Assembly: GCA_030272155.1 (NCBI GenBank)
Contig: CP126205.1
Location: forward strand, 3,274,501 to 3,338,500
DNA: 64,000 nucleotides
Source of the DNA: Tetradesmus obliquus
Taxonomy: Eukaryota; Chlorophyta; Chlorophyceae; Sphaeropleales; Scenedesmaceae
Reading direction: 5' to 3'
The notes under the pieces: generated by a model
What the model saw: the letters and a program-made list of their open reading frames with translations, nothing else
Databases searched by the model: none
What the model was told of the DNA's origin: nothing
Shown: positions 335 through 63,975 of the stretch, piece after piece
Numbering within the stretch: the stretch's first letter is position 1
Layout of the letters: the number at the start of each line of letters is the position of its first letter
Position numbers and translations under genes: made by a program

Positions 335-2491
335 GACGCTGTGTCGGTGCAGCTGGGCGGCTGTGTGGCGCGCTCACAGCTGTCGCACCTAGGCGACAGC
401 TCAGGGCGGCTCATACTGGAAGACCCCCTCACAGGTGAGCATGAACCCTTGCAATTACCTCATGATAACTTGGTATTCTGGATGTATTTTGTGCAGCTGT
501 CGCCCCACCTAAGAACAGCTCTGGGTGGTGCATCCTGGAAGCCCCACTCACAGGTGAGTATCTGCCCTGTATGTTTGTTATGCTCTTGCAACTATACAAC
601 CGTTGCTCCTAAGGGACAGCTTGGCGCGGCTGCATTGATTCACCCAGGCTCAGCCACTTCAGCGGCTGCTGCACCCCTGCCATAATAACACCGTTAAGAT
701 TGTTTTTCCAGTGGACTCTCACAGAGCTGCGCACCAACGACTGGCTGCCCTGCTGCTGCTGCTGCTGCTGCTGCAGGCCGCGACGTGGCCTCTGGCAGCT
801 ACCGCATCATCGCTGTGCAGATGGCCTTCAGCAAAGCAGCGCGGCGGCTGGAGTCCCTCGCACAATCCAGCAGGGGCAGCAGCAGCGGCCGCATCAATTA
901 CCTGGAAGGTCTGTTTGATGTGGCGAGGGCCCTAGACCGGCAGGGCCACCGGCGCGGCGGCTGGGGCGCTGCTGCTGCTGGTGCTGGAGGCTTGGTGGAC
1001 GAGTACTTTGTGGTGCAGCAGGGCGGCCGCTTTGTGGTGAGTGGATGTGGGAGTGTGTGCTGCGTGGTTTCGGGCGGCAGTGCTGATTGCGTGTTCATTG
1101 CTTGGCTTTGTTGAGGGGCGGTTCTGCTGTCTGCAGCGCTGTTGCTAGCTGCTGCATGCACCAATTACTTGGAGGGTCTGTTTGACGTGGCCAGGGCCCT
1201 AGACAGGCAAGGCCACCGGCGGGGCGGCTGGGGCGCTGCTGCTGCTGCTGGTGCTGGAGGATAAATGGACGAGTACTTTGTGGTGCAGCAGGGCGGCCGC
1301 TTTGTGGTGAGTGGATGTGGGAGTGTGTGCTGCTGCATGGTTTGGGGCGGTAGTGATGATTGCGTGTTCATTGCTTGGCTTTGTTGAGGGGCGGTTCTGC
1401 TGCCTGCAGCGCTGTTGCTAGCTGCTGCATGCACCAATTACTTGGAGGGTCTGTTTGACGTGGCCAGGGCCCTAGACAGGCAAGGCCCCCGGCGGGGCGG
1501 CTGGGGCACTGCTGCTGCTGCTGGTGCTGGAGGATAAATGGACGAGTACTTTGTGGTGCAGCAGGGCGGCCGCTTTGTGGTGAGTGGATGTGGGAGTGTG
1601 TGCTGCTGCATGGTTTGGGGCGGTAGTGATGATTGCGTGTTCATTGCTTGGCTTTGTTGAGGGGCGGTTCTGCTGTCTGCAGCGCTGTTGCTAGCTGCTG
1701 CATGCACCAATTACTTGGAGGGTCTGTTTGACGTGGCCAGGGCCCTAGACAGGCAAGGCCACCGACGCGGCGGCTGGGGCGCTGCTGCTGCTGCTGGCGC
1801 TGGAGGCTTGATGGACGAGTACTTTGTGGTGCAGCAGGGCGGCCGCTTTGTGGAGAGTGGATGTGGCAGTGTCACGGTGCTGCTGCATGGTTTGGGGCGC
1901 CAGTGCTGTTCAAATGTTGGTGGTGTGGCTGTGTTGAGGGGCGGTGGTGCTGTCTGCAGCGTGTTTGCCAGCTGCTGCATGCATCGAGCCAAAGGTGTGT
2001 TATTAGCGGGTTCTGCTGCAGCTGCTGCATGCATCGAGCAGCCGGACTATGTCAACAGCGGTTTTGCTGTCTGCAGCGCTGTTGCCAGCTGCTGCATGCA
2101 TCGAAGTCGTGAGACTTGGTGGCTGGGGGTCGGGTAGAGGTGTGGAGCCCAGGGGCGCCGCCGCTGGCCACACACGCCTTCTTAGCCTTAACCTACCCAG
2201 GAGCTGCAGAGCTGCTTGGGCAGTCACTCACTTACTCACTCACTGGCTGGGGGTGGGGCCGGCTGCCTTGCACGCTCTGGAGGTGTTGCTGTGACGCTCA
2301 CGTGCACAAACCTGCTGCTACCCTCTGAATGCTGCTTGTAGGACACGCCCCCTGACGAGCACTTGCAGCTGCCGCCACTGGAAGGGGAGGGGTTTGGAGA
2401 TTTGGACGAGCTGGAGACATACATAGACAGCATGTACAGCGAGCAGCAGCCCAGCAGATCCAGCCGCAAGCGGAAGGGCAGCAGCAGTTGA
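335..2491 (+). CDS. uncharacterised protein, C-terminal part (5' end outside or unresolved)
   Basis: Three exons join in frame: 335-434, 777-1036 and 2342-2491, with acceptors TTGCAG, CTGCAG and TTGTAG and donors GTGAGC and GTGAGT. They encode about 169 residues ending in TGA. I do not recognise the family. Visible features are LEDPLTG near the first junction, a helical stretch (IIAVQMAFSKAARRLESLA), an Ala/Gly spacer, YFVVQQGGRFV, then an acidic segment (LDELETYIDSMYSEQQ) and a basic tail (SRKRKG) that could be a nuclear localisation signal. No start codon was found, so one or more exons probably lie left of base 1. The second intron (1037-2341) is filled with tandem copies of the tail of exon 777-1036, two of which carry an in-frame TAA. 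The reading is supported by exact phase matching across both introns; the function is unknown. Confidence 0.55.
494..553 (+). repeat. donor-side echo of exon 335-434
   Basis: A diverged copy of the last 60 bases of exon 335-434 ending in CACAG|GTGAGT. It keeps a usable donor but lies inside the intron. A more degenerate third copy can be aligned at about 608-650. Confidence 0.75.
747..776 (+). repeat. (CTG)n tract abutting a 3' splice site
   Basis: CTG repeats run directly into the CTGCAG acceptor of exon 777-1036, in the place of a polypyrimidine tract. Confidence 0.8.
896..1852 (+). repeat. four-copy tandem array, about 273 bp unit, of an exon tail plus intron
   Basis: The exon tail beginning CAATTACnTGGA (896) recurs at about 1162, 1435 and 1708, each copy ending TTTGTG before the splice site (1036, 1306, 1579, 1852). 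Copies 2 and 3 keep the GTGAGT donor but have GGATAAATG where the first has GGCTTGGTG, which puts an in-frame stop in both. Copy 4 has lost the donor (GGTGAG became GGAGAG). Spacing is 266-273 bp. Shorter echoes of the intron part continue to about 2110. Confidence 0.9.
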
Positions 2492-3411
2492 CGATGATGT
2501 GTTGATGTGGCGCCCTGCGCGCTGTATAAAAAATTGCAGGGAACACGCATTGCAGCAGCACAATGCAGCATATTGCGCTGCACTCCTGCAGGACAGCAGG
2601 CAACGAGGCGATGAGGCATGTGCCGGCGCGCCTGGCTTGATCTGCTGGGTTGTTGGCTTGGAGGCTTCGTGGCGCAATGTGGCAGCTTGGCTGCTTGGTG
2701 CAGCGTGGTGAACCGCATTTGTGTGTTGGCTGTACGCGTTGGCTGTACGCGTTAGGCAGGACACCGCTTTGTGTGATGTGCCACGTGCATGCTACCTGAT
2801 GGGAAGGCAACTGCGGCGCTCCATGCACCACGTCAAAACGTAAAGCCGTTGTTTGTGATCATACTGCGTCAACGTGCTTGGGTTCGATTGGACCAGATCA
2901 GCAGAATGCAGGCCAGCCTGACGCATGGGCTCACGTGGCGTGCACACCGTTGACCGTGCTGCGTTGTGCCCAAGTGGCAAGCGCGTGCCGCATGTCATTT
3001 CGTAAGAGCTGGTGTAAGCCACAGATGGAAACGTTTGGGCAAGAAACAGCTGGTTCCAGCCGATGTGACGACGACTGCACACAGAACGGGATGGCGCAGG
3101 GGGAAGGGATGCCCATCCCACACCAACAATTAATAATGGCGATCCAAATACTATAGCTACTCTCCAAAACGCGTATGGGCAGCATTGTTACTTACTCGGC
3201 TCGGGTCCTCGTTATCTGCAAGCCGAGCACTGCGATCACACTGGTATGTAGCTACGCCTGCGCATGATTTGCATCGAGAGTGCCCAAGGCACACTAAACA
3301 GCAACGTTGATAAGCATTCTTGTACGTTGCCCCTTGTGCCACGCACAGCAGCAGATATCGCGAGCCCTCGCAGCACAAAGGACGCAGCACAGCTTGACGT
3401 CTCCCACCGCA
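2492..3411. other. intergenic: 3' UTR of the first gene, septin promoter
   Basis: No coding exon was recognised. A TGTAA motif at 3013-3017 is the first poly(A)-signal candidate after the upstream stop. The remainder leads into the septin ATG; no clear TATA box was seen. Confidence 0.5.
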
Positions 3412-6400: not shown

Positions 6401-7912
6401 CTAGCAAGCTGCTGCTTGTGCGATAGCTGCTCATACGCATGTTGCGACAGCGTGCATAGCAAGACGCTGGCGCCGCTGGACTTCAACAAGTTGATCACCT
6501 ACTGATGGTCTCAACCCTGCTGCGTGCACTGCTGTCCACGACCCCGCAGATCCGCACGCGCCTGGCCGCACCCTTCAAGTACGTGCACAGCAAAACGCTG
6601 GCGCCCCTGGACTTCAACAAGTTTGCGTTCGATAAGTGCGTCATGAACGCGCTGGGCCTCAAGGACGACATGATGCCCCTGGCCATCATCACCTCCAACA
6701 AGCACGAGCCGGTGAGGCTGTTGAATGTTGTCAGTGACGGTTATGACTGTAAACTGTGTTTGGTAATGGCTGGGCCTCAAGGATGTCATGATGCCCCTGG
6801 CCATCATCACCTCCGATCAGCACGAGCCGGTGAGGGTCTATATGCAGCAGCAGGGTTTGTTGATGTGTTGTGTGGCTGACTGGCTGGCTGGCAAACTTGT
6901 TGCGTTGTGGCCACCATCACCTCAACAACAAGCACGAGCCGGTGAGGCTCTCATTGAATGCTGCCAGTGGCAGCTTGAACAACAGCAACAGATTGTTCCG
7001 GCCAACCAATCTGCGCTGATCCTGATGCCAGCAGTACCCCGCATGTAGCATCAGCTGGCCATCGCCCTTGCCTGCACCTGCCTGACCCACTTCCCCGCCC
7101 GCCCTGCCCCTTGTGACACATTTGTAACACATTTTTCTAAACTTTTCCTCGACAGGTGGAGGACGCCTCGCTGCTCTCGCAGCTGGGCCTGCAGGCCAAC
7201 TCCGAGAAGGTGGAGCAGCCCGTGCGTCAGTACAAGTGGGGCCAGGCCTACGCACTCAACCGCGAGCACTCCGACCTCATCGTGCTGAAGCGCCTGCTGC
7301 TCGGTGACCGCGTGGACAGCCTGTACGCCATGCTGGACCAGTCCTACAAGCGTTACGTAGAGTTCTGCGAGCAGTACGAGGAGGCCGGCAACCAGCTGCC
7401 CCTGATCGTGCAGGTGCGGCTGCTGGCATAAGTGCACTGAGTGTGCATGCGCCATTCTGTCAGCAGGGTCGGCAGTGACCGGCAGTGTGTGCTTGATGCT
7501 CGGTGCTTGATAGCTCCTGCTGCGTGAAGTGCTGCTGCTTGAGTAAATCCCCGCGCCGTGCACTCTTCCTGCTCTCTGCTGTCTGTGCTGCTCCGTCGCC
7601 TGCCTATCACATGACACCTCTGCACTTGCTGTCTTTTACCTTGTGAACTCACAGGATGAGCTGGCCTGCTCAGCCTACCTGGAGTACGATGACTACTCCA
7701 ACGCCAAGTCAGCACTGGACGCTGCACAGCAGGTGCGTCTGAACCCTTGTCAGAGCATAAAACCCCGGTGCAAGATGGTTGTGTATACATTCTTCCTTGG
7801 TGTCGCACCACATGCATAGCCAGCTGTGATTTCATTTTAATCCTGGGCAGACGGAACACGGCCTGGATGTGCTTTTGAGTCCAGTGCAACAAGGGCTGAT
7901 CTCTGGTGCTTT

Positions 7913-7949
<37 letters not shown>

Positions 7950-11661: not shown

Positions 11662-12051
11662 GGCTGCTGCAGGTACGAGAACGTGGTGCAGATTCGCTGC
11701 CTGTATGAGGGCGTGACAGTTGAGCAGATGCTGGCTGGCTGGCACGACATGTTGCCAGCCAAAATGAAGGAGTGGGGGCTGCAGCGCAGCGAGGTGCGCG
11801 GCAGCAGCACAACATGCAACAACCTTTTATTGTTTTAGTGACACAACTTGTTGGGTATATGTTCAGTATTAATGCTGGTGCCAGGGCACTCTGCTGCTGG
11901 TTGTTGCAATTCTGCACTACTGCAACTGCAAGACTTATGTACAACTGCTGCTGCTTCTGCAGTGCAGGTACTGGAGCTGTTTGGGACAGCTGAATTGCAG
12001 AGAATTGGCAGGCTGTCATCTGCCACCCTTGCTTGATCCTGCACCGCAACC

Positions 12052-12089
<38 letters not shown>

Positions 12090-13627
12090 GCAGCTGGTGG
12101 AGCTGTTTGGGGGTGTGCGGGACAGCTGGATAGCAGATGACCTGGCAGGCTGGCTGGCCCCCAACCGCATCTACCCTGGCGTGGCTGATGCTGTGGCAGC
12201 AGCAATGCAGCAGGACGATGTGTACATTGTGACCACCAAGCAGGTGTGTGTATGCATGGGCTGCTGTCACGCAGCGCAGCCCAATGCACACAGGTTTATC
12301 TAGATGTTTGCTGTGTGGTATCGTCTTCTGCGGTGTGTATTGTGGTGTGCATTGTAGCACAGCAAAGCATATTGACTGTATGCAGTACCCTTAGTGTACA
12401 ACAGGACGGTACGGAAGGTGCTATGTTGCCTTGGAGCAATGACCATGCAGCTGTGGTGGTGCTGCGAGGGACAGCAGCTCGGTAGGCTGCGGATACTAGC
12501 CGCAGTGGTACTGCTAATAGTAGCCATGGTAGCCGGTCAGCCCGCTGCAGGCTGCAGATCGTGATGTCCAACTGCTGCCTAGATGCTGAAATTGGTGCCT
12601 GCAGGCGCACTACACAGAGGTGCTGCTGCGCGACATGGCTGGCATATCCTTCCCGTCAGACCGCATCCACAGCACCACAGTCAGCGGCGAGCCCAAGGCG
12701 TCAGTGCTAGGCCGCCTTGCAGCGCAGCATGCTGATGCAGCCGGGTATATCTTTGTAGAAGACAAGCACAGCACGCTGGAAAAGGTGAGGGCGCTATTGC
12801 ATACCCGAGCAGTGTGGTTGGTTGATGGAGGCATGATTGCGCAGCATTGCTGATGGCCTGCTGCTGCAACATAAAAGTCAGCGGCGAGCCCAAGGCGTCA
12901 GTGCTGGGCCGCCTTGCAGCGCAGCACACTGATGCAGCCGAATACATCTTTGTAGAAGACAAGCACAGCACGCTGGAACAGGTGAGGGCGCTGTTGCAGA
13001 TCCAAACAGTTTCATTCTGTTTGATCGAGGCATGAATGCGCAGCATTGCTGATGCCTTGTGCTGTTGCTGCACAACGGTTAGCGGCAAGCCCAAAGGCGT
13101 CAATGCTGGGCAGGCTTGCAGCGCAGCATGCTGATGCAGCAGGCTACATGTTTGTAAAAGACAAGCACAGCACGCTGGAAAATGTGAGGGCACACGCTGT
13201 CATCATCATGTTGTCACTTGCAGTATACCATTGCAGGTCACCAAGGCGCCATGCGCTGAAGCATGGCTACTGTGCCTGGTTGACTGGGCCTGCATTACAC
13301 ACCTACATCAGCGACTTCTCACTCCTTTCGTGTTGCGCCCTGCAGGTCACCAAGGTGCCAGCACTGAGGCGTGGCAGCTGTACCTTGTTGACTGGGGCTG
13401 AAACATACCTCGCTGCCTTTGCTTTTGTTACTTATAACAAATGAAAACCAGGTCTGTTGTGTTGCGCCCTGCAGGTCACCAAGGCGCCAGGGGCAGAGGC
13501 GTGGCAGTTGTACCTTGTTGACTGGGGCTACAACACGCCCGCAGAGCGCCAGGCGGCAGCAGCAGACCCGCGCATCACGGTGGTAGACTTGCAGCACTTC
13601 CAGCAGCTCATGGGCCTCTCAAGTTGA
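10311..13627 (+). CDS. HAD-superfamily hydrolase, organelle-targeted
   Basis: Eight exons join in frame: 10311-10434, 10529-10568, 10956-11001, 11207-11313, 11673-11793, 12094-12243, 12605-12784, 13475-13627 (306 residues). The first 40 residues (MLFRCAGRVAV, then Ser/Thr/Ala/Arg-rich) look like a transit peptide to plastid or mitochondrion. HAD motif I is DFDGVVCDS with nucleophile D52 and acid D54. Motif II is probably IVTT (191-194), motif III the Lys of GEPK (K227), and motif IV FVEDK (D249). PVVETGYENVVQIR resembles a plant HAD-like family of unclear substrate, so I do not assign one. Exons 6, 7 and 8 each have echo copies in the flanking introns; only the copies listed give a continuous frame. 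A phosphatase or phosphoglycolate-type role is possible but not shown. Confidence 0.85.
11621..11660 (+). repeat. (CTG)n tract before HAD exon 5
   Basis: CTG units run to within 12 bases of the acceptor of exon 11673-11793. Confidence 0.85.
11967..12033 (+). repeat. acceptor-side echo of HAD exon 6
   Basis: After GTGCAG the sequence reads CTGGAGCTGTTTGGG, as in the head of exon 12094-12243, then decays. Its acceptor is intact, and it lies upstream of the real exon. Confidence 0.75.
12050..12087 (+). repeat. (CTG)n tract before HAD exon 6
   Basis: About a dozen CTG units end at GTGCAG, the acceptor of exon 12094-12243. Confidence 0.9.
12877..13183 (+). repeat. two donor-side echoes of HAD exon 7
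   Basis: 12877-12981 repeats the final 105 bases of exon 12605-12784 in frame (VSGEPKASVLGRL...EDKHSTLEQ) with donor GTGAGG. 13078-13183 is a third copy with a frameshift and donor AAT|GTGAGG. Spacing is about 200 bp. Confidence 0.92.
13237..13410 (+). repeat. two acceptor-side echoes of HAD exon 8
   Basis: GCAG|GTCACCAAGG heads occur at 13237 and 13346, before the intact one at 13475. Both copies break the reading frame within 60 bases. Confidence 0.9.
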
Positions 13628-17191: not shown

Positions 17192-19193
17192 TTAGTGCCC
17201 TGTGAAAGCTGAAGCATGCGAGTCCAGCGACAGCACCACGAAGCTCAGCGCGAGGCTCAAGCTATATGCAACACCCAGGCTGCTGGTCCTGGCCCGCGCC
17301 AGAGCCTGCTGCCTGGCCGTGGCCTTTGCGCCTTTGCCCAAGATGCGCTCGTGCTCTGGCGCATACACGGGGGCACCGGAAGCATCAAAGAAGCGGCCGA
17401 TGCGGCCGGGCGACGTCAGCAGGCGGTATATGGCGCTGGCTGGGGTCAGGTACCTGCAGGGCAGGAGACAGGCAAACACAGGGCAGCGTCGCATGGTGCT
17501 TGTTGTTTGTTGGTGTTGTGCAGGGGGGCGCCGGGGCTCCACGCATGCAGCCAGTGCGGCCAGGCGAGGTCAGCAGCCTGTAGTTATCGCTGGCAGGACA
17601 GGCAAGCAGGAAGACAGCTTCAAGTGGTGCTTGATGTTTGGAGCACATGGAGGGACTTTGCAGGCATCAAACAAGCGGCCGATGCGGGCCGGGGAGGTCA
17701 GCAGGCGGTAGATGGCGCTTGCAGGGGTCAGGTACCTGCCCGCAGGCAAGTATGGCAGCACGCGGGCATAGCAGCACGCGACTGTCGAGTTACGAAGAAG
17801 TTTGATACTTGACTTGGTGCTTGTGCCGGGGATCGGTGCACAGCGCTGGCTGGGGGTAAGAAACCTGCGGGTGAGTGAGCATGGCTGCAGGCTGCTGCTG
17901 CTGCTGCTTTTGATGCGCGGTGTTATGAAATGTGGCAGCCATGCAGCTCAGGAGAAGCCCCGCAACAGAGCCTCAGGTTGAGCAGTGAGTGGCTGAACGG
18001 CAGGCACCTCCTTCAAGGCAGTGGCCGACGTACAGCCACTCACTGCTCTACCTGCCCCAAGATCAACGTACACATCACCAACATCAATTTGCTGTGAAAT
18101 CACAGCAGTGAGTGGTTATGCACACAACAACCCACTGCGTGTGGGCCCCACTGGGCATATCAGACACCGTAGTGTGCATGCTTGACAGCTGAGACCACAC
18201 AGATACTAACTAAAGAAGAGTGTAGTTGTTGCAAGATGTCACGCCAGTTCAGCCTGTGTATGGCTGAGGAGCCATGCGCAACCTCAACTGCCTTGAAGGC
18301 CCGAACAAGCATGCCTCAAACAACGGCCGATTGTACACAATCGCTCCAAAAACACTCACCGATGTGAAGGTGCCGTTGAGGCCGCACAACACGCCAGAGC
18401 GCACTGGCTGCAGTTCAAATCATAATGCACATCCAGCAAAACAAACCAGCAAATACACAGGTACCCACCGCGTGTAGATGCCGTTGAGGCCACAAGCTTC
18501 TGCAGAGCGCACTTGCTGCATTAAAGCACGTTGCATGCCAAGCCAAACAGCAAAGCACAGGTACCCACTGCGTGTAGGTGCCGTTGAGGCCACATGATTC
18601 TGCAGAGCGCACTCGCTGCATTTCAAACCATAATGCACATCCAGCAAGACAAACCAGCAAACACCCACCGCGTGTAGGTGCCGTTGAGGCCGCAGGACAC
18701 AGCAGAGCGCACACGCGGCACCAGGAAGGCCGCGACAGTCTCCGGGTGCTCACACAGGATGTTGAAGGCCTGCTTGTTTGCTGCTGTAGCACCTTCCAGC
18801 AGCAGCTCAGTCAGCATCATGCCTGCATGGTTTGCAGCAAGGAGTCAGAACAGCAGCAGCAGCAGCAGTGTCAGTAGCAGCAGCTCGGCCAGCATCACGC
18901 CTGGAGAGAGACACAGCAGTCACGGGCGGCACGGCAGCAACAAGACAGCAAGAATGTGGCCCGCCTGCTTGTTGGCTGCTGACGCAGCCCTGACGACTCA
19001 GGCACTGATGCAGCCGCAGGCTTCATGGTTCTGAACCTATTATACAATCAGCTGATTGGCAGCAGCAGCCTTGACTACGTCTGAAGGGAGAGCGCACCTG
19101 GTGACAGCACGTGCACGCCCACATGTGTGGATGCCAGCTCAGCCCTGAGGGAGGCGGCAAGCTGGGGGAAGGAGGCCTTGGTGGCACCTGGAC

Positions 19194-24247: not shown

Positions 24248-24297
<50 letters not shown>

Positions 24298-46200: not shown

Positions 46201-47470
46201 GCCATCAGCCGCATGCCCCGCTGGAGCAACAACAGCATTTCCAACTCATCCACAGCCAGCAGCATGCCAAACGCGCGCCCTCAATGCGTTGCGTCATAAT
46301 AGTCAGCGATCAGCAACTGCGCATTGGGCACCATCACTACCAGCCCCAGGCCATTCAGCGCCCACAGCACGCTGCCCTGCCAGGTGGCACTGCTGCAGCA
46401 ATTGACTCTCACCCATCTGAGTCCACAAGCTCCATTGCCTCTCATGGCAAACACTGTTTCTGGCAGCGCAAATAGCTGCAGCTATTTCCCACCACTCACC
46501 TACAGCCAGCAGCATACCGAAATCTCTTCCTCTGTGCGTTGCGTCATAGTAATCCGCGATCAGCGACTGTGCATTGCGCACCATCACTCCCAGCCCCAGG
46601 CCACTCATCGCCCACAGCATGCTGCCCTGCCAGGTGGCACTGCTGCAGCAACTTGGTTTGATCTACCCCTTTTGATTCCATACATCTTCATAGACATGAA
46701 TGCAGCAAAACAGCTGCTGTGCTGGCAGCGCAAGTAGCTGCAGCTATTTCCCACCACTCACCTACAGCCAGCAGCATACCGAAATCTCTTCCTCTGTGCG
46801 TTGCGTCATAGTAATCCGCGATCAGCGACTGTGCATTGCGCACCATCACTCCCAACCCCAGGCCACTCATCGCCCACAGCATGCTGCCCTGCCAGGTGGC
46901 ACTGCTGCAGCAACTTGGTTTGATCTACTCCTTTTTATTCCATACATCTCCATAGACATGTATGCAGCAAAACAGCTGCTGTGCTGGCAGCGCAACCAGC
47001 TGCACTGGCCTCACTCACTCACCCACAGCCAGCAGCATGCCAAAAGCTCTCCCTCTGTGTGTAGCGTCATAATAGTCGGCGATCAGCGACTGCGCATTGG
47101 GCACCATCACACCTAGCCCCAGGCCATTCAGAGCCCACAGCACGCTGCCCTGCCAGGTGGCACTGCTGCAGGCAAACAGCGTTGTCATCAGCGCCCAGTA
47201 CCAGCATGTAACAGCCACCAGCCGCGCGCGGTTCAGCTTGTGACCTGCAGCAGCAGCAGCAGCGCAGCAGCAGCAGCGCAGCAGCAGCAGTTTCTTTCAC
47301 ACATACAATGCCAGCAAATGACCGCCAGCAGCCGCGCCGCGTGCAGTTTCTGCCATGCAGCAGACGCCAGCATAAGCAGCAGCATTTGCTTGCGCTTGCT
47401 GTACCGCAGCTGGAGGCCGCCTCAAGGCTGCCAGTAGCTATACAACGCATCATCCCTGGCACCCCATGAG

Positions 47471-47502: not shown

Positions 47503-48318
47503 CACCCAGCAGTCCTCCCGCTGGTGAGGCCAGGGCCTGAGCCAGCAGCCTGCTGAAGGTCATAGCTCCCAGCTGGGCGGGGCTGGCTGCAACAAGGGCA
47601 AATACAGCCAGCGGAACACGGCGCCAGTAATTTGCACAGCTGTTGCAGAATGCACAGGCCGTCAGCAACCAGGGAAAAAGCTGCTGGAGGTATATGCCAG
47701 CAAGCTTAGGCACGGTTGACATTGAGTTTCATGCTAAGGGGGGCAAGAGAGTGCAAGAAAAGCATGCAGAGCATGGGGTGCCAGGGCCTGGGCCAGCAGC
47801 CTGCTGAAGGTCATAGCTCCCAGCTGGGCACGGCTGGCTGCAGCGCAGTGAAATGCAGCAAAACATAATGCAATTGTCAAGGAACAGCCGTTGCTATACG
47901 CACAGACAGTGAGCAATCAGGGACAGCTACTGGAGATCTGCTGCTGGTAGCAGTGTCAGCAGCAGATGCTTTTCCAGCCTGGCACATGTGCAGGAAGCAG
48001 GGTGCACCAACCTGAGAATGCACAGCCCACATACAGGTAGACAGCAGGAAGCAGCGAGGCATCTGTGTTCTCCAGCACTCGAGATATTGCCACCAGGAAC
48101 GTGGTCAGGACGCGATGGTGGTGAACGATGTAGCGCTGTGCTGCTGCTGCTGCTTCTTGGAACTCATCCTGCAAGCTATGATGCTGCTGGTGCAGGCGCT
48201 GCTGCAGGAGGTACGACTTTTCCTCTTCATTTATCGTGCTCAAGTGTTGCTGTTGGTCTCTGGCTGCTGCCGCGTGCGCATCAGCACTGCCTGCGGGAGT
48301 GATGTCGTGCAGGTCCAT
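43268..48318 (-). CDS. major facilitator superfamily transporter, spinster-like
   Basis: Eight exons on the minus strand: 48318-48012, 47586-47506, 47244-47023, 45986-45517, 45239-44823, 44507-44420, 44042-43892, 43484-43268 (650 residues). The N-terminal 70 residues are soluble and Gln/Glu-rich. RVLTT FLVAISRVLENTDASLLPAVYLYVG opens helix 1 and matches plant spinster-like MFS proteins. The loop after helix 2 (GGLLGHKLNRARL) is the MFS motif A position. GLNGIGL-type sequence (LNGLGLGVMVPNAQSLIADY) and GWRFAFLSV follow. A Ser/Gly-rich central loop divides the halves. VPWTLCVLVYSFLHCTYPRDKRR closes the membrane domain before a cytosolic tail. Spinster relatives move sphingolipids or lysolipids, but the substrate here is unknown. 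Exons 2 to 6 all have echo copies, making this 5-kb gene mostly intron. A TTACA (minus TGTAA) lies at 42975, 290 bases past the stop. Confidence 0.9.
44600..44769 (-). repeat. three acceptor-side echoes of MFS exon 6
   Basis: CAG|GGC(G/A)TG(C/T)T heads at 44769 and 44617 keep AG. The copy at about 44689 has lost it (GCAC). The intact exon starts at 44507. Spacing is 72-110 bp. Confidence 0.8.
45305..45359 (-). repeat. acceptor-side echo of MFS exon 5
   Basis: GCAG followed by the exon head coding GFLGSMPWSAFAHTTLFLQLQ, 120 bases upstream of the intact exon, which has FAFTT instead. Confidence 0.93.
46030..46083 (-). repeat. acceptor-side echo of MFS exon 4
   Basis: CTGCAG|GCAACATGGG head coding GNMGTTLSKLYATN, 97 bases upstream of exon 4 (45986). 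Confidence 0.92.
46251..46882 (-). repeat. three donor-side echoes of MFS exon 3
   Basis: Each copy spans about 120 bases of the exon 3 tail (LGLGVMVxNAQSLIADYYDATHRGR). Ends are at 46762, 46500 and about 46251, spacing 249-262 bp after the intact donor at 47023. The first two are open in frame and keep GTGAGTGG; the last has a TGA and a ruined donor. Confidence 0.93.
47246..47291 (-). repeat. (CTG)n-rich tract, sense, before MFS exon 3 acceptor
   Basis: Interrupted CAG repeats on the plus strand next to the acceptor of exon 47244-47023. Confidence 0.85.
47770..47839 (-). repeat. acceptor-side echo of MFS exon 2
   Basis: CTGCAG|CCAGCC(G/C)TGCCCAGCTGG head coding QLGAMTFSRLLAQALA, about 250 bases upstream of the intact exon (47586). 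Confidence 0.92.
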
Positions 48319-49267: not shown

Positions 49268-51093
49268 TCACACTAGCAGCAGTGCTAGCAGCAGCAGGAC
49301 GCTCATAAATACCTGCAAACAGCAGCAGCAGCAGCAGCAGCAGCAAGTTAGGGGACAGAGTGAGCATGCATCGTGATGCCAATGCCAGCAGCAGCTGCTC
49401 GTTGTGCTGCTACGCTGGCTGAGCACCAGGCTAGCAGCTGCCTGTGTATATGCACTGTATCACCTGGCAGGTGATGTCCTTGCATCATGCTTGGAGGCAG
49501 CACTGCTCAGGCACCAGCACTGCTGTGCATCCTCTGTTCAACACAGACAACAGTAGCGCAGCAGCGCATAAGATGGCACCGCACTCACCAGCTGTACTCT
49601 GGCAGCGTCAGCGCTGCTGCTACACATATCCTCTGCTCTCATCTGAACCATAACACTGCTGCACATCAGCAAAGGTGACATCAGCGCAGCACCCCATTGC
49701 ACTTACCAGCTGCACTCTGGCAGTGCCAGCGCTGCTGCCCATGGGCTGGTTGCAGTATGCTGCAATGTCTTCATTGCCAAAGCTCGGCCGCCGCCTGCCG
49801 AAACATTGGAAGAGCTGATCGCTAGACTGCCAGCACTCGGAGAATCGGGGGTCGGGGCAGGTGGCCACAACAAGGCTGGTGCTGTTGGTATCCTTGCAGT
49901 TGGAAAGGGCCTTCTGGCACACGTTTTTATAGCCTGCAGAGGCACGAAGACACAGCAGCAGGAAAAAAACTATATTGGCGCGCGTGCCACATGCTGCAGG
50001 TGCAAGCAGCCAGCCATTGCCATATGCAGAGTGCCAGGGTCATGGTTTGAAGGAAGAGTATATGACACACGAAATCACCGGGAACTGCAAGCACCGCTGA
50101 TGCCTGCGTACAAACACTCAACCCTTACTCACATTGCACGCCGAAGCCGTTGCAGTAGGCCTTGCTGTTGCTGGTCAGCAGTAGTGCAATCCGTAACCAT
50201 CATCAACGCAGCCCCAGTGTGTTGCTGCATAACTGAAAACAATAGCCTAATGTTCTTTCACTCACATTGCACACTGAAGCCGTTGCAGTAGGCCTTGCTG
50301 TTGCTGGTGAGGCTGTACAGCGCTGTGCCGGCCATCATGCCACCCGCAAAGGGCAGCAGCATGGAGGTGCTGCGGTGGCCCGGCTTGTTGTAGGAAAAGG
50401 GGCTGCCGCCTCCAAAAGCCCTGAAATACAACACAGAAATACATTTAAAAACGAACGCAAACCACACAAAACACGCAGCTGTGTTTGCTTGGGAGCTGCA
50501 CTGCAGAGACGTTGCGAAGCTGCGGCTGAGCTGATGAAGATAAGACATGCTAGCCGCGGGCTGCACGTCAAGCTCAGATGACAAGCAGCAGCATATGCAG
50601 ACGTACCATAGCTGCACAATGCTGCCACTTGTCTCGAGTGTGCGCTGCAACTGCATGCTATCAAGTTAACTGCTGCTTTGTTCAAGGGCTGCGATGAATA
50701 CTCTGGGGTGACATGTCGGTAAGCACACCAGAATGTGATGCATGTTTATGTACTACACAATGTGGCTTGCAGGACACTCATTCACCTGGCACCTCCAGCC
50801 ATAGCACCTCCTGCCATTGCCCCCCCTGCCATGGCACCTCCTGCTGCAGGAATGCCAGTCACTGTGCCTCCTGGCCTTGCTGTTGCTGCTGGGTAGCCCA
50901 TCACGGGTGCTGTTGTTGGCCTGTAGCTGCTGGTTGTTGGTGTAGACATTGGCCGGCTGCCAAAGCTGGTCCGTGAGCCACCACCACTGCGTACACCGGC
51001 TGATGCATGCGGTAAGGCTAGCAGCAAGAGCACAGCAGCTGCTTGAAGCAGCAGCAGCTGATGTCCTGAGCAGCGCGTCGTCCGTGCTTGCAT
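49268..51093 (-). CDS. secreted or membrane-anchored cysteine-containing protein, unknown function
   Basis: Four exons on the minus strand: 51093-50786, 50420-50266, 49933-49707, 49312-49268 (244 residues). The start MQARTTRCSGHQ is followed by a strong hydrophobic core (LLLLQAAAVLLLLALPHASA), a clear signal peptide. The mature protein begins Gly/Ser/Thr/Pro-rich, then has four GGAMA-type repeats. A hydrophobic patch follows (SMLLPFAGGMMAGTALYSL), then a Cys-rich region (about nine Cys, e.g. VCQKALSNC, FSECW, YCNQP). The last exon is only 45 bases and supplies a 14-residue hydrophobic tail (SVLLLLALLLV) right at the C-terminus. That suggests a GPI-type or tail membrane anchor. I do not recognise the family. 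A cell-wall or surface role is an inference from targeting only. Confidence 0.75.
49320..49343 (-). repeat. (CTG)8, sense, just before the final-exon acceptor
   Basis: CAG run on the plus strand separated by a few bases from the acceptor of exon 49312-49268. Confidence 0.88.
49591..49630 (-). repeat. donor-side echo of secreted-protein exon 3
   Basis: A copy of the exon tail ending GTACAGCTG|GTGAGT. The intact exon ends GTGCAGCTG|GTAAGT at 49707. Confidence 0.85.
50133..50180 (-). repeat. donor-side echo of secreted-protein exon 2
   Basis: A copy of SNSKAYCNGF(G)VQ-coding sequence ending GTGCAAT|GTGAGT, 133 bases after the intact donor (50266). Confidence 0.9.
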
Positions 51094-53639: not shown

Positions 53640-53930
53640 CTGCACTGCCACAAGAACACACAATGGCTGCAGCACATAGCCCAGCCTACTGAGGTGCAGG
53701 GGGCCTTGCTGCTGCTGCTGCTGCTGCTGCTGCAGTGCTGTCACAACTACGGCAGCGGCTCCTGCACGTTGCCCAGCCTGTTGAGGCGCAGGAAAGCGTC
53801 CGTGCCACCACGCTCATTGAATGATCTGCACGCTGGCTGCTGCTGCAGTCAACACTAGAGTAGCAACAGCAGCGGCAGCAGCAGCGGCTGCTGCCCAATC
53901 TGCTGAAGTGCAGGCTTCACTGCTGCTGCT
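53640..53930 (-). repeat. terminal-exon echoes of PDK after the stop codon
   Basis: Copies of the tail coding [14 protein letters not shown] occur at about 53750-53815 (best), 53890-53925 and 53645-53700. They lack the intact stop context and lie in the 3' UTR. Confidence 0.82.
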
Positions 53931-53932: not shown

Positions 53933-56095
53933 TTACGGCAGCGGCTCCTGCACATTGCCCAGCCTGTTGAGGTGCAGGTAGGCGTCCGTGCCGTATCCCT
54001 CCATGGAGATGATCTGCAGGTCGCCGCCAAAGTAGCGCGCATACAGCCTCGATACCGGCAGGCCATAGCCGTATCCGGCCAGCACTGCAGGCCCATCTGT
54101 GTCATCCTGCAAACACAAAAGAAAAAGCGGCATCAGCAGCAGCACGTAGCACAGATGACGACGCGTACAACATAGGCTGCTGTGTGTCACAAGACACTAC
54201 ACCGCACATTGCGCAAAACACCCAACCAGAAACTGGTGATAACTGCCGCAGAAGCCCCAGCAGCATCACTTGGCCCATGAAACACGACAACCCTGCGTTG
54301 GCTGGCCTGGCCACTACTACAAGATTGCAACAAAACGAATTGTTTGTGCCCAACGGTGTGTTGCGCGTACACAACACTTTTCCAGCCCATGCACCTGCAG
54401 CTCCTCCATCTGCACGCGCGACTTACCGGTTGAGTAGAGGTAAGTCCATCCGCATGCATAGACAAGCAACCACTACATAGCTCAAAACAAAGCAGGCGCA
54501 CGGTACCAACCTGCAGCTCCTCAACCTGCACGCGCGTCTTAGTGGTAAAGTAAAGGCAGGTATTGCAAGCAAGCACTAGGGGCCATCAAAAGTAACACAC
54601 ATCTGACGCAAGCAGGAGCACAACACGCACCTGCAGCTCCTCCATCTGCACGCGCGACACGCGCGGTCGAGTAGAGGAACGCCAAGATTGCAAGCAGACA
54701 CAAGCAATCACTACATAGCTCAACACCCAGCAGGCGCACGGTACCAACCTGCAGCTCCTCCGACTGCATGCCCGACTTGGCGGTAAAGTAAACGCAGGTT
54801 CAATTGCAAGCAAGCACTAGGGGCCATCAAAAGTCAGTCAGAATCTGACGCAAGCAGAAGCACAACACGCACCTGCAGCTCCTCCATTTGCACGTGCGAC
54901 TTGGCAGTCAAGTAGAGGTAGGTCCAAACGCAAGCATACACAAGCAGCCACCAACTAGCATCTGACATAGCATGCGCATAACACGCACTTCATCATCAAC
55001 GAATTACCAGTCAAGCCACAGCAATAAAGCTGTCGGCCCAACTACACGCACCTGCAGCTCCTCCATCTGCACGCGCGACTTGGCGGTCGAGTAAAGGTAG
55101 GTCCAGATGCGCGCCAGACCGCTGCGGGGGATGCCGCCTCCCTCATCAGACACCTTGATGGTCACGTCCTCACCTCCCTCAGCCACGACAAGCCTGCGGC
55201 GCAGCACAGAGTAAGTTGCAGAGTGAGATGGCAAGACCGCGCGCAGTGTGACATGTGAGCCAGATGTGCAGCACGTGTGGTCATGTCTGCGCCGTCGCAG
55301 GGGTTCTGCTGCTACAATCATACTAACAGATGACAACATAAATGATTAAGCTGAAGTCATCACACTGATCCGCGGCGGATAGGCATCCGCGTCTTCAAGC
55401 GTCCTGCACCATCACCACTATCACTTATATCACCTATCAAATCCTAATCTTTGCATCATAATTCATCATCCACTTGTTGACAGCAGTATACAAGACAATC
55501 ACCTGATGGGCGGCGGCTCGTCGTCCGCGTCCTCGAACCTGTCCTGCACCGCACGCAGGCTGTTCTTCACCAGCTCAAACACCATGTGGTGCAGGTGGCT
55601 GGGCACGTACGCAAACACAAAGTTGGGGTCGCCGTAGATGGACACGTCGGGCGCAGCGCCGTACTCGCGCATGCAGATGGAGCGCGCGTCATTGATGGCG
55701 TCCTGCGCCACCTGCAATGGGATGAACAAAAGTGCAGCACGGTGTTGGCGAAAAGAGCCAGGAAGCCATGGAGCGGGCAGCTTGTGGGCGGCAGGGCGTT
55801 GACTAGCCAGCTGCACATGGTGTGCAACTGAACGCAACCAAGCCACGCGACACGCACATGCTGTGTCGGACAGCAGCTGCAGGTTGTTGAAATGTCAAAC
55901 GCATGCTGTGCGACATGGGCTGGCATTCAAAGGAAGGCAACAGATGGTGGAGGATATCGGCTGACAGAGCAGCAGACCGCACAAAGGTGCAGTCTCGCAT
56001 AGGCTGCCGGCCGCACCTGCCATGGCGAGCACTTGGTGCAGATGAGGCCTATGTGATTGGCCTTGGAGGGCTCGTGCAGCGCTATATGCTGGCCT

Positions 56096-56145: not shown

Positions 56146-58318
56146 GATGTTGTGAGAGTGGTGCTGCTGCGTCACCGTTGCACAGCACTGTCGCAGGCGG
56201 CTCACACCCCAATCACACCAGCTGGCAGCCTGCCATGCAGCTACATCCAGTTAACTGACAGCTCATTTCTGCAAACATTTTCTAAATGATCTCACTGATG
56301 AGCATGCGGATGCCAATGCGGCTGAGGTAGAAGCCGCATCAGCAACCCTGCAGCCAAACCCCTCATTTCAGCTACATCATCTAAACGCTTGGAGTCATAT
56401 GTCACTCACCGATGAGGATGCGGATGCCGATGCGGCTGAGGTAGAAGCCGTCCAGGAACTGGTGGATCTCCGGCATCTCGGTCAGCACCGCGCGCTCACT
56501 CAGCTCGCGCTTGAGCTCAGCCACACCCTGCAACACAAACATGGGGCACGCATGATTCTGTTATAAAAAAACGAACAGCAGACAGGGAAGACAGGACGCA
56601 GCGCTGCAGCTGTACGACGCCTGCAGGAGAGGCTGGCGGCAGGCACAGTTCTATGTCAAAGTACGTGCCGACTGAGCGGTTTGTGGATCTCCGATAGCAC
56701 CGCGCGCTCACTCAGCTCGCGCCTGAGCTCAGCCACGCCCTGCAGCACAAACACGGGGCACGCATGACGGCGTAAGACCGTGTTGATGACGAACACAATG
56801 CAGACAGGAAAGCCAGGATCAAGCAGCGCTTCAGCTGTACTGCGCACTGCAGGGGGGGGCAGCGGCAGGCACAGTTGCCGTGACAAGCTACATGCGGATC
56901 AAGCAATGGTGCATCTCTGGCATCTCAGTCAGCACCGCGCGCTCACTCAGCTCGCGCTTGAGCTCAGCCACACCCTGCATGTGATGATCGCAGAGGCAGC
57001 GCATCTGAAGGAGCAAACACCATGTCATTTGTAAAACAAAAAGGTCCAAACACAGCATGACAGCGGGAACAAGCAGAAGAGCCGGGCCAGGAACTACACC
57101 TAGAAAACATGCATCCCACCAAGCAGCTGCAGCAGCACATCATTGCTGGGATCAATACGCACACATGCACACATACAGACACCTACAGCACCTACCTTGG
57201 CCATCACAGGCACCACGTTGGCGTGACGCCGGTAGATGTGGCAACTGCAACCAGCACTGCTACCAGACAGCTGCAGCCGCAGCACACTCAGCCACACGCA
57301 CATAAAGGCACGCACATGCGCCTTGCTCCACTCAAGCAGGTGCAACATCTCAGCCGCCAAAAACGTCAACAGCAAACACACATCACACACGCAGCCTCAC
57401 CTTGGCCATCACGGGCACCACGTTGGCGTGGCGCCGGTAGATGTGGCGCAGCAGCTCCGTGAACTTGAGCTCGTCGTTTGCGTCACGGATGTGCGGGAAG
57501 GTGCGCAGCTCCTTGAACGACTCCACGTACCAGTCGCGCACCTGCACAAATTAAGTTAATGGGACGTGCAAGAGGAGTTGCTGAGGCGCTGACGTGCAAG
57601 TAATGATGTGCATTCTGCGCTGATGATGCAACCCTGCTGCTGGGAACATGACGTACGGCTGCTCAGCGAAACACGATGCCAGCAGCGCTGCTTTCTAAGC
57701 ATTGCTGCGACTGCTAACAGTCGGCTGAACTAGGCGAGGCCGAGCGCTGGCCATGTTGCAGGATGGGCACTAATACAAATTACAAAAATGTTTCAGGCGC
57801 AGGGGCATGCAGGAGTTTCCTGCAAGCCGGCCGTGTGTCAAACACCACGGTATGCGGCTCCATTGCCACTGCCGTACCAACCACGCTGCTCCTGAGAGCC
57901 CCTTCTGACCCATATGCAGCAACGCAAGTGGCATGTCGACAGAGACGCTTACACAACCCCAAGATCAGCTCACCTTGAGGATCGAGCTCTTGCTGGACAG
58001 CCCATATGGCAGGTTCTCTAACTCAGCCACGCGGTGTGCCAGCCGCACTGGCAGCTCCTTATGCAGGAACTGGCTGCTCAGCACCAGCTGCCGCTCAATA
58101 GGGCTGCTGCCAAAGTCCAGCATGTATTTCAAACTGACGCCGGTCTGTTTCTTCAGTGCGTGTGCAAAGATGTCGTCCACTACTTCTCGCGCCTGTGTAT
58201 CTGCCAGGCGGATGCCTTGATTGAGGCCCAAAGAGCCTGCTGCTGCGGCACGCACTGCGAGCCGCGCAGCAGACGATACTGCCGACATTGCTGCGTTATA
58301 CACGGGTTGCGCGGCCAT
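53933..58318 (-). CDS. PDK: pyruvate dehydrogenase (acetyl-transferring) kinase, mitochondrial
   Basis: PDK phosphorylates the E1-alpha subunit and switches off the mitochondrial pyruvate dehydrogenase complex. Seven exons on the minus strand: 58318-57974, 57541-57401, 56527-56410, 56093-56017, 55711-55503, 55193-55052, 54106-53933 (401 residues, typical for plants). The Ala/Arg-rich start ([16 protein letters not shown]) fits a mitochondrial presequence. The N-terminal four-helix domain has [25 protein letters not shown] and [14 protein letters not shown]. The GHKL ATPase domain has the N-box ELVKN (E273, N277), the G1 box DEGGGI (313-318) and the G2 box GYGYGLP (355-361). The end, [23 protein letters not shown], is diagnostic of PDK. 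Exons 2, 3, 5, 6 and 7 have echoes, with five copies of the exon 6 tail in one intron. The ATG at 58318 gives the presequence; no upstream in-frame ATG was evident. Confidence 0.95.
54395..54910 (-). repeat. five donor-side echoes of PDK exon 6
   Basis: The tail coding ...MEELQ with CTGCAG|GT recurs with ends at 54873, 54749, 54631, 54511 and 54395, after the intact end at 55052. Spacing is about 116-124 bp. Donors alternate GTGCGTG and GTTGGTA, which shows a dimeric higher-order unit of about 240 bp. Confidence 0.95.
55370..55415 (-). repeat. degenerate donor-side echo of PDK exon 5
   Basis: GTGCAGGACG...GACGCGGATG..CCGCCG resembles the exon tail ending at 55503, with indels and no clear GT donor. 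Confidence 0.6.
56096..56144 (-). repeat. (CTG)16, sense, abutting PDK exon 4 acceptor
   Basis: An uninterrupted CAG run on the plus strand directly before (transcript sense) the CTGCAG acceptor of exon 56093-56017. Confidence 0.95.
56295..56340 (-). repeat. donor-side echo of PDK exon 3
   Basis: A copy of the tail coding [13 protein letters not shown] with donor CATCA|GTGAGA (intact: CATCG|GTGAGT at 56410). Confidence 0.88.
56640..56974 (-). repeat. two acceptor-side echoes of PDK exon 3
   Basis: GCAG|GG(T/C)GTGGCTGAGCTC heads start at 56974 and 56739, upstream of the intact head at 56527. They diverge within IHQ/IHK. Spacing is 212-235 bp. Confidence 0.93.
57197..57245 (-). repeat. donor-side echo of PDK exon 2
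   Basis: A copy of [14 protein letters not shown]-coding sequence with donor GTAGGT, about 205 bases after the intact end (57401). Confidence 0.92.
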
Positions 58319-62988: not shown

Positions 62989-63975
62989 ATGGCGGTGGGC
63001 GACGTGCTGGACAAAACATCCAACCAGCCCAGCAAGCTGAGGGCCTTCTTCAACCGGAGGTGAGGTCACGCAGCCTGCTTACACCAAGCAGCTCACAGCC
63101 AAGAAACCCACACGCAATCACCAGCTTACACCAGCGGGTGGCAGCACACCAATCAACAGTAGACTGCTGTGCTGTGGTGCAATTGTACGTTTCGCAGGAG
63201 AACAGTTGCTGTGCTGTGCTCATGCTGTTGTAGCGCATGCATGACGGTGCATGCAAACCCTCACCAACAGTGCTCGCCACCAGACACCAGCTGGTCATGC
63301 CTGGTGTACAATCAAATCAGCAAGCGCCCTTTGTCTTGCTGACAGTACTGCTGCTGCTGCTGCTGCTGCTGCTGTCACCCTGCAGGAACCTTGCTGGGCT
63401 GCTGGGGGCGGCAGTAGCAGGGCCTGGCCTGAGGCTGGGACTGCCGGGCATGGTGGTGGGCTATGTGGCCTGCAGATGGATCTACAGCAAGACAGAACAG
63501 TGAGTGCGTTTGTGTGCAGAGCTGCGGCGGTCTTCCACTTTTTGTGGTGTTGTGAGTTGTGCCTGCAGGTCGATTCTACAGCAGGACAGAACAGTGAGTG
63601 TGCATTACCATGCACTGCAGTGCAGCACGTGTGGTGTTACTGCAGCTGCTGGAGTTCATAGTGGTGCAGTGCGAATGGTTCAGAGACAGCATGCTGTGCT
63701 GCATGCAGCGTATGCAGGCACCCGCAAATGCATTGGTTACTGGTTTGAACCTACTCCTGCTATGCTGCTGCATACTTCTGTCCGCAGCATGGCTTCTCCT
63801 CACTCTCGTCAGTGGCAACATGTTGTACGACTACTGCTGCTGCTGCTGCTGCTGCTGCTTATTTAGGTTTGTGCCCTTCACCAAGCGCCGCCACATCATC
63901 CTCATGCCGTCAGTGGCAGAGGCAGTGCTGGGCGCACACCTGTATGAGTCCTTCCTCATCGAGCAGCACAAAAAG
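62989..63975 (+). CDS. OMA1-like M48 metallopeptidase, N-terminal part (continues beyond the window)
   Basis: Exons up to 63059 (in frame from an Ala-rich run and the ATG at 62989), 63386-63499 and 63867-63975 join in phase and end at a donor GTGTGT, so the gene runs off the right edge. The reading MAVGDVLDKTSNQPSKLRAFFNR, then a hydrophobic Gly/Ala/Leu segment (LAGLLGAAVAGPGLRLGLPGMVVGYVA), then FVPFTKRRHIILMPSVAEAVLGAHLYESFL. The VPFTxRxHxxLxS plus A(L)GxxLYxxF block is characteristic of OMA1-type peptidases just before the HExxH zinc site. That site is not in the window, so catalytic competence cannot be judged. OMA1 acts in mitochondrial inner-membrane quality control; a plastid location is also possible in algae. 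The true start may lie further upstream. Confidence 0.7.
63350..63373 (+). repeat. (CTG)8 before OMA1-like exon acceptor
   Basis: CTG run 12 bases before the acceptor TGCAG of exon 63386-63499. Confidence 0.85.
63561..63593 (+). repeat. donor-side echo of OMA1-like exon
   Basis: GCCTGCAG(G)T(C)GAT..CTACAGCA(G)GACAGAACA|GTGAGT copies the tail of exon 63386-63499, 94 bases downstream. Confidence 0.92.
63833..63860 (+). repeat. (CTG)n before OMA1-like exon acceptor
   Basis: CTG run followed by TTATTTAG, the acceptor of exon 63867-63975. Confidence 0.85.

What the first reader, a model, noticed from the sequence alone, without database searches (positions are those of the whole stretch)
335..63593. 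Exon-edge echoes: introns built from repeated copies of neighbouring exon ends with their splice sites
In ten genes of unrelated function, on both strands, intronic sequence next to an exon contains one to five tandem, diverged copies of that exon's tail or head together with the splice site and adjoining intron. I count more than 30 copies (genes at 335, 3412, 10311, 21996, 22355, 37617, 48318, 51093, 58318 and 62989). A strict positional rule holds: donor-side copies lie only downstream of the intact exon, acceptor-side copies only upstream, so the intact exon is always the outermost one. This fits repeated local tandem duplication across exon-intron borders as a main mode of intron growth in this genome. 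It leaves many decoy GT or AG sites that the spliceosome must ignore or may use. Part of the rule follows from selection, since other placements would break the gene. Duplications wholly inside introns would be harder to see, so the true rate is probably higher.
Basis: partly seen in the sequence, partly recalled or inferred. Interest (0 to 1): 0.88.

Follow-up and report, generated by a model that had tools for sequence, protein, structure and literature searches.

The report
Exon-edge copies that lengthen introns
In this green-alga-like genome, short stretches straddling the ends of protein-coding segments are repeatedly copied next door, and the spare copies decay inside the introns, so introns grow out of worn copies of their neighbouring exons; the process is of a known kind but unusually frequent and easy to see here.

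Summary
I list 43 echoes at 26 edges. In 23 other loci (230 kb) of the same 105-Mb genome: 75 of 530, against 20 of 480 and 7 of 530.

Best explanation: recurrent local tandem duplication, nearest copy at a median 124 bp, spanning an exon edge; the outer copy stays in use and the other decays. Non-synonymous echo changes include stops at the random rate, 11 against 11.0 expected. Stop-codon edges carry echoes too (8 of 36), start-codon edges hardly (1 of 34), so the positional rule is geometry plus survival. A paralogous intron is 1192 bp with four echoes and 218 bp without. "Main mode" of intron growth is unproven; visible echoes span 27% of intron bases. Two things stay unexplained: surplus synonymous divergence between exon and echo, and no traceable intron half in about a third of units. 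Splice-site use was not testable.

The parts
494..553 (+). Echo of the tail of exon 335-434 with donor site
   Evidence: identity 0.79, reaches junction, CAG|GTGAGT kept
1158..1852 (+). Three tandem echoes (1158-1306, 1431-1579, 1704-1852) of the tail of exon 777-1036
   Evidence: identity 0.89-0.91; last copy lost GT; the first two carry TAA where the exon has TTG (read from the alignment)
6451..6492 (+). Acceptor-side echo of exon 6550-6711 (septin gene), interior of head
   Evidence: identity 0.93, starts 32 bp inside the exon
6769..6941 (+). Two donor-side echoes (6769-6829, 6908-6941) of exon 6550-6711
   Evidence: identity 0.92 and 0.91, both keep CCG|GTGAGG
11972..12015 (+). Acceptor-side echo of exon 12094-12243 (HAD hydrolase gene)
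   Evidence: identity 0.80, 14 bp from junction
12876..13182 (+). Two donor-side echoes (12876-12981, 13070-13182) of exon 12605-12784
   Evidence: identity 0.93 and 0.88
13237..13405 (+). Two acceptor-side echoes (13237-13303, 13346-13405) of exon 13475-13627
   Evidence: identity 0.78 and 0.87, CAG|GTC kept
17521..17735 (-). Two acceptor-side echoes (17521-17597, 17664-17735) of exon 17192-17453 (SDR gene)
   Evidence: identity 0.73 and 0.90
18364..18620 (-). Three donor-side echoes (18364-18412, 18469-18520, 18570-18620) of exon 18669-18822
   Evidence: identity 0.81-0.86
18876..18900 (-). Short acceptor-side echo of exon 18669-18822
   Evidence: score 35, identity 0.88
19362..19447 (-). 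Donor-side echo of exon 19586-19786; all 11 differences synonymous
   Evidence: 0/0/11 by codon position over 86 bp; donor broken
19931..20014 (-). Acceptor-side echo of exon 19586-19786
   Evidence: identity 0.84
20215..20385 (-). Two donor-side echoes (20215-20275, 20328-20385) of exon 20438-20626
   Evidence: identity 0.87 and 0.80
23604..23752 (+). Two acceptor-side echoes (23604-23653, 23688-23752) of exon 23896-24016 (chlorophyll a/b-binding gene)
   Evidence: identity 0.77 each
25201..25260 (+). Stop-codon-side echo of the last exon (24851-24968), downstream of the stop
   Evidence: score 105
36001..36027 (-). Echo of the interior of last exon 36146-36311 (MAPEG gene), downstream of the stop
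   Evidence: score 44, controls 15 and 17
45297..45359 (-). Acceptor-side echo of exon 44823-45239 (MFS gene)
   Evidence: identity 0.89, CTGCAG kept
46039..46079 (-). Acceptor-side echo of exon 45517-45986
   Evidence: identity 0.80
46250..46910 (-). Three donor-side echoes (46250-46398, 46502-46648, 46764-46910) of exon 47023-47244
   Evidence: identity 0.88-0.92
47780..47837 (-). Acceptor-side echo of short exon 47506-47586
   Evidence: identity 0.95; source of the single wrong-side hit
49589..49620 (-). Donor-side echo of exon 49707-49933
   Evidence: identity 0.91
50133..50178 (-). Donor-side echo of exon 50266-50420
   Evidence: identity 0.93
53748..53806 (-). Stop-codon-side echo of last exon (53933-54106) of the BCKDK/PDK-type kinase gene
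   Evidence: score 98
54395..54926 (-). Five donor-side echoes (54395-54448, 54511-54561, 54631-54688, 54749-54802, 54873-54926) of exon 55052-55193
   Evidence: identity 0.83-0.91
55365..55410 (-). Donor-side echo of exon 55503-55711
   Evidence: identity 0.79; GT lost
56297..56336 (-). Donor-side echo of exon 56410-56527
   Evidence: identity 0.95
56687..56974 (-). Two acceptor-side echoes (56687-56739, 56907-56974) of exon 56410-56527
   Evidence: identity 0.91 and 0.96
57196..57242 (-). Donor-side echo of exon 57401-57541
   Evidence: identity 0.96; GTGAGG in exon, GTAGGT in echo
63545..63593 (+). Donor-side echo of exon 63386-63499
   Evidence: identity 0.80, ACA|GTGAGT kept

Best explanation
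The echoes are leftovers of recurrent local tandem duplication, most often of roughly 90-150 bp. When the duplicated segment spans a splice donor, splice acceptor or stop codon, the gene keeps working with the outer copy and the other copy, splice site included, becomes intron or 3' flank. It then decays with little or no coding constraint while the kept exon is held by selection, so the exon part of the pair stays recognisable longest. Repeats of the process and array expansion give up to five copies and lengthen the intron. The positional rule follows from geometry and survival: a copy on the other side would need a re-use of sites that breaks the protein, and start-codon copies would add an upstream ATG. 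Shown here: the excess, the sides, the spacing, stops and radical missense changes at about random rates in echoes, longer introns, independent births in two paralogues. Inferred: tandem duplication as the event, use of the outer splice site, and loss of start-edge copies by selection.
For: 25 of 112 edges on the right side, 1 of 86 on the wrong side; 75 of 530 against 20 of 480 in 23 other loci. Nearest echo at 90-150 bp in 43 of 71 edges, median 124. The intron part of the unit is more similar than intron flanks of other genes at p<=0.05 in 34 of 67 edges, 3.4 expected. Echo changes: stops 11 observed, 11.0 expected; mean BLOSUM62 -0.40 +- 0.10, random -0.52 (103 echoes); 44 of 51 gaps shift the frame. 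Septin paralogues: echo-branch changes 12/10/14 by codon position, exon-branch 1/0/2. Paralogous introns 1192 bp with four echoes against 218 bp without. Stop edges 8 of 36, start edges 1 of 34. Longer echo-bearing introns, p=0.0007.
Against: Exon-echo differences lie at third codon positions (142/124/382) more than neutral echo plus fully free synonymous change in the exon allows (59% observed, 44% expected; cluster bootstrap 0.55-0.64). Simple duplication from the same allele does not predict this; allelic divergence before the copying would, but that is not shown. Gaps per substitution are fewer in exon-echo alignments (0.128) than in intron pairs (0.294), and first- and second-position divergence is lower in the 20 bp next to the junction (0.031-0.038) than at 20-59 bp (0.071-0.083); both hint at some constraint on echoes, or at alignment selection. 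Contiguous intron-side homology is seen in only 12 of 43 window echoes, and 21 of 67 units show no intron-half similarity (p>0.2). Gene models are mine, without RNA.
Confidence: 0.8

Rival explanations
1. The echoes are functional alternative exons or alternative splice-site extensions, kept by selection and spliced into some mRNAs.
For: Third-position excess between exon and echo; fewer gaps in exon-echo alignments than in intron pairs and lower divergence next to the junction; splice dinucleotides intact in 84 of 96 junction-exact echoes; some echoes read as in-frame exons in my gene finder (497-553; 46500-46639 and 46755-46901); 19362-19447 differs by 11 synonymous changes only.
Against: Stops among non-synonymous changes at the random rate (11 against 11.0 expected) and missense about as radical as random; 44 of 51 gaps shift the frame; copies are mostly partial exons whose use would insert intron sequence; echo-branch changes 12/10/14 over codon positions in the polarised septin pair.
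Confidence: 0.09
2. The echoes arose by unequal exchange or template switching between strongly diverged alleles, so that each echo already differed from the present exon at synonymous sites and introns when it was made (a special form of the best explanation).
For: Surplus synonymous divergence (382 third-position differences, 352 synonymous) while non-synonymous echo changes look random; in the gene at 335 the exon part of the first unit is more diverged (identity 0.91) than the intron part (0.94); a third of units have no traceable intron half; no source elsewhere in the genome for three echo regions (capped searches).
Against: No polymorphism data; recombination after an ordinary duplication in a diverse population would leave the same signal; septin echoes are close to their own exon.
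Confidence: 0.25
3. A splicing-linked process (reverse splicing, or copying from pre-mRNA) creates the copies, which is why they end at splice sites.
For: 39 of 43 window echoes come within 3 bp of the junction, although the search stretch ended there, so this is weak; 21 of 67 units show no intron-half similarity; duplications are enriched at exon edges (96 of 120 clusters against 56.6 expected).
Against: Stop-codon edges, which are not spliced, carry echoes at a similar rate (8 of 36); duplications of similar size occur outside genes (11 of 120 clusters); intron sequence is part of the unit in at least 34 of 67 edges at p<=0.05, 3.4 of them expected by chance.
Confidence: 0.05
4. Introner-like mobile elements inserted into many genes.
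For: Many unrelated genes carry intronic repeats.
Against: Copies match their own neighbouring exon: no hit in other genes' introns in 112 x 60 draws and none elsewhere in the genome for three echo regions.
Confidence: 0.01

Closest known systems
Internal (intragenic) gene duplication, Gao and Lynch 2009 (PNAS 106:20818; not held; known here from citing papers PMC4974935 and PMC3443670, passages read, and recall)
   Same: Tandem duplication inside genes, including segments with introns, common in eukaryotes.
   Different: There, as cited, the interest is new introns and duplicated whole introns; here mostly existing introns are lengthened by partial exon copies, at 22% of edges in the window, with nearest copies typically about 120 bp away.
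[quoted passage not shown] passages in PMC4974935, PMC3443670)
   Same: Tandem duplication supplies ready-made splice sites.
   Different: No new intron is needed: the duplicate lies in an intron that already existed and its sites are spare.
Novel Drosophila intron positions by sliding or tandem duplication (PMC2891723, abstract and other passages read)
   Same: Exonic duplication followed by one copy becoming intron.
   Different: There the duplicated segment is coding with a proto-splice site; here the segment spans a real exon-intron border and the intron position does not move.
Introners (PMC9860276, search listing with the start of the abstract only)
   Same: Repeats found in introns of many genes.
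   Different: Echoes are private to each exon and local.

Membership tests
Internal gene duplication | Duplicated segment lies within one gene, same orientation, near the source | tested here: met
   42 direct local pairs, none direct beyond 3 kb, 1 inverted within 3 kb; other genes' introns none
Internal gene duplication | Tandem unit continues on both sides of the exon border | tested here: inconclusive
   Met in 34 of 67 edges (p<=0.05 against intron flanks of other genes), not seen in 21 of 67 (p>0.2); contiguous extension in 12 of 43 window echoes
Internal gene duplication | Independent births in related genes | tested here: met
   Septin paralogues carry different echoes; the exon 4 and 5 echoes share paralogue-specific bases with their own exon
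Intron gain by AGGT tandem duplication | A new intron arises inside a former exon | tested here: not met
   Septin paralogues share the intron positions that I compared; length, not position, differs
Alternative or mutually exclusive duplicated exons | Copies are coding sequence under selection | tested here: not met
   Stops 11 against 11.0 expected, missense near random severity; third-position excess and fewer gaps point the other way
Alternative or mutually exclusive duplicated exons | Copies are included in mRNA | not testable with these tools
   No RNA data
Introner elements | Same element in introns of many genes | tested here: not met

The most novel reading that the evidence does not exclude
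This algal lineage has a high-rate, exon-biased process that duplicates about 120 bp in place, and this is the chief source of new intron sequence, explaining why its introns are longer than those of relatives. The surplus synonymous divergence between exons and echoes would then mark copying between strongly diverged alleles, so that introns keep a fossil record of past exon alleles. Some spare splice sites would still be used.
Probability: 0.2. Interest if true: 0.78.

Novelty: new variant of a known kind. Interest (0 to 1): 0.58.

Why it matters
How introns get longer without transposons is, to my knowledge, poorly documented. Here single events can be read off as worn copies of the neighbouring exon, with built-in controls (wrong side, stop against start codons, paralogues). 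It gives a test bed for how a spliceosome picks one of several near-identical splice sites about 120 bp apart. It also warns gene annotation: my own gene finder took several echoes for exons.

Tried and rejected
Rejected: chance similarity, mobile elements, functional exons as the main reading, a splicing-specific mechanism (stop-edge echoes). My first impression that homology is cut sharply at the splice site seemed to vanish (50 of 67 intron halves above random stretches), but that control used arbitrary stretches; with intron flanks of other genes as control the count is 34 of 67 at p<=0.05 and 21 of 67 show nothing, so the sharp cases stand for about a third. Gene conversion from exon to echo was considered for the third-position excess and dropped: it would reset all positions and give at most the same 1.7-fold ratio (reasoning, not a call). 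Echo-against-echo comparison (67/77/116) and within-group polarisation (exon-unique 12/5/28, echo singletons 50/39/72) were ambiguous, because changes in the exon between two echo births look like echo changes.

Weak points: the masking was too strict and missed at least one echo (57196-57242). Gene-finder runs 15, 17 and 18 over-chained or merged genes, one search failed; models were then curated by hand. The start of the gene at 335, the first exons of the gene near 22355, and the outer exons of the genes at 38116 and 51093 are uncertain. One search counted 175 sample hits including masked-base artefacts and is superseded (114 echoes with at least 20 aligned bases and within 3 bp of the junction; others dropped). 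leave out locus L018 (near-identical microexon array, 11 of 114 echoes). Intergenic and genic classes rest on automatic gene calls. Ten paper searches (two searches returned no paper) listed no title or abstract opening that describes exon-edge echoes; I read passages of PMC5966456, PMC4974935, PMC3443670, PMC3488318, PMC3449122 and PMC2891723, no paper in full. Gao and Lynch 2009 and Hellsten 2011 are not held. The organism was not identified by any search; Scenedesmaceae is a guess from composition and recall.
Full report
What was checked. The window lies at G000:C15:3274501-3338500 in a 104.66-Mb genome of 17 contigs, GC 51-61% by 2-kb bin. No call names the organism. A published table gives Tetradesmus obliquus GC 57% and mean intron length 462 bp, against 230-302 bp in four other green algae (PMC5966456, passages read); the window fits that species or its kin, but this is inference.

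Observation. Masked self-comparison gave 42 direct repeat pairs within 3 kb, none direct further apart, one inverted pair within 3 kb and seven inverted beyond; 20 shuffles gave none. I trained a small gene finder on the window and curated 13 genes with 56 canonical introns, 13739 coding and 22480 intron bases. Sixty-base exon tails and heads were compared with the adjacent introns: 25 of 112 edges match on the expected side, 1 of 86 on the other, 0 of 112 in reverse complement, and none in 60 draws per edge from introns of other genes. All hits listed: 43 echoes at 26 edges after dropping one low-complexity row. Gene families are unrelated: septin, HAD hydrolase, BCKDK/PDK-type kinase, chlorophyll a/b-binding, SDR and MFS. 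Four of the 13 genes showed no intronic echo at this threshold: the trypsin-like, MAPEG and STI1-domain genes and the gene at 38116 (families).

Genome-wide. In 23 further loci of 10 kb, chosen by fixed coordinates, automatic gene models gave 75 of 530 edges on the expected side, 20 of 480 on the wrong side and 7 of 530 in reverse complement. The higher wrong-side count may come from echoes taken for exons by the gene finder; I did not test that. Tandem arrays of period 40-500 were found in 18 of these 23 loci.

Anatomy. The nearest echo lies 90-150 bp from its exon edge in 43 of 71 edges, median 124 bp (without the microexon locus L018, 42 of 65, median 127). Splice dinucleotides are intact in 84 of 96 junction-exact echoes. 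Echo donors in the window score a median 5.2, real donors 6.9, any GT -1.2. The intron half of the nearest unit is more similar than intron flanks of other genes in 34 of 67 edges at p<=0.05 (3.4 expected), while 21 of 67 show nothing (p>0.2); identities run from 1.00 to background. A tandem unit whose intron half decays on both copies and whose exon half decays on one predicts the first group; the second is either older, rearranged, or copied from a source with a different intron.

Decay. Over 114 echoes (37 window, 77 sample) the differences by codon position are 142/124/382. Neutral echo plus freely changing synonymous sites in the exon predicts at most 44% at third positions; 59% is seen (p=1e-13; 0.55-0.64 by bootstrap over 71 edges). 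Of the third-position differences, 352 are synonymous and 30 not. I first read this as selection on the echoes. A sharper test went the other way: among non-synonymous changes stops are as frequent as random (11 observed, 11.0 expected) and missense changes are about as radical as random (-0.40 +- 0.10 against -0.52; 103 echoes, L018 left out; gap-free echoes -0.33 +- 0.13 against -0.50). So most echo change looks free of coding constraint, and the surplus most likely lies on the exon side or predates the copying. Two results sit less well with fully free decay: gaps per substitution are 0.128 in exon-echo alignments against 0.294 in intron pairs, and divergence at first and second positions is lower within 20 bp of the junction (0.031-0.038 against 0.071-0.083 at 20-59 bp); both may be effects of how local alignments are chosen. 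A simple split gives about 0.06 changes per site on the echo branch and an extra synonymous divergence of several per cent; ancestral allelic divergence is the likeliest source, but no polymorphism data were available.

Natural experiment. A septin paralogue on contig 17 has different echoes. Intron lengths in the paralogue against the window (lengths read from the junctions printed there): exon 2-3, 589 bp with three echoes against 212 bp with one weak one (score 33, below threshold); exon 3-4, 1192 bp with four echoes against 218 bp with none; exon 4-5, 473 bp with an exon 5 echo and a short exon 4 match against 331 bp with none; exon 5-6, 227 against 276 bp, none in either; exon 6-7, 301 bp with none listed against 266 bp with one echo, which goes the other way. 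With each paralogue polarising the other, echo-branch changes are 12/10/14 by codon position and exon-branch changes 1/0/2. Two poorly aligned echoes supply 16 and 8 of the 36 echo-branch changes, so this is a small and uneven sample.

Positional rule. Stop-codon edges carry downstream echoes in 2 of 12 window and 6 of 24 sample genes; start-codon edges carry upstream echoes in 0 of 11 and 1 of 23 (pooled 8 of 36 against 1 of 34, p=0.03). A copy after a stop is harmless; a copy before a start adds an upstream ATG. The rule is therefore geometry plus survival and needs no splicing-specific process. Of 120 local duplication clusters in 294 kb, 96 span a predicted exon edge (56.6 expected at random), 7 lie on exons (16.5), 6 in introns only (21.5), 11 outside genes (25.4).

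Intron growth. Echo-bearing introns have median 396 and mean 561 bp (20), others 310 and 313 bp (36), p=0.0007. The stretch from exon edge to farthest junction-reaching echo sums to 6158 of 22480 intron bases, a rough measure of what this process has visibly added but not proof that it is the main mode.

Verdict. Real, seen across the sampled genome, and best explained by recurrent local tandem duplication with largely unconstrained decay of the spare copy: a known kind of event at an unusual density, with a preferred size, an unexplained synonymous surplus, and a third of units without a traceable intron half.

Noticed in passing
window 34346-35080 (-) and 41546-42035 (+): Two very similar single-exon reading frames in inverted orientation about 7 kb apart, each next to an Rfam tRNA match (34210-34276 -, 42336-42402 +). 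ARAGORN reports no tRNA, and no Pfam family was found for the 41546 protein.
   Followed up: partly
window 39072-39664: A 31-bp minisatellite of 19 copies (96% matches) fills more than half of an intron of the gene at 38116.
   Followed up: no
window 750-776, 7916-7953, 24249-24299: Long CTG/TGC runs end at or next to splice acceptors, as if replacing a polypyrimidine tract (sequence).
   Followed up: no
L018:5798-6157: A 79-bp tandem array (4.6 copies) whose units hold a 37-bp exon-like piece flanked by AG and GT; my gene finder reads several as exons.
   Followed up: no
L020:16-3959 and 4115-6039: Large tandem arrays of 279 bp (14 copies) and 345 bp (5.5 copies).
   Followed up: no
window 17974-18054: An 81-bp imperfect palindrome inside an SDR-gene intron, the only inverted local pair in the masked window comparison.
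   Followed up: no
window 13619-13718: A 48-bp tandem duplication (98%) that includes the stop codon region of the HAD hydrolase gene; not counted among stop-edge echoes because the 60-bp test did not reach threshold.
   Followed up: partly
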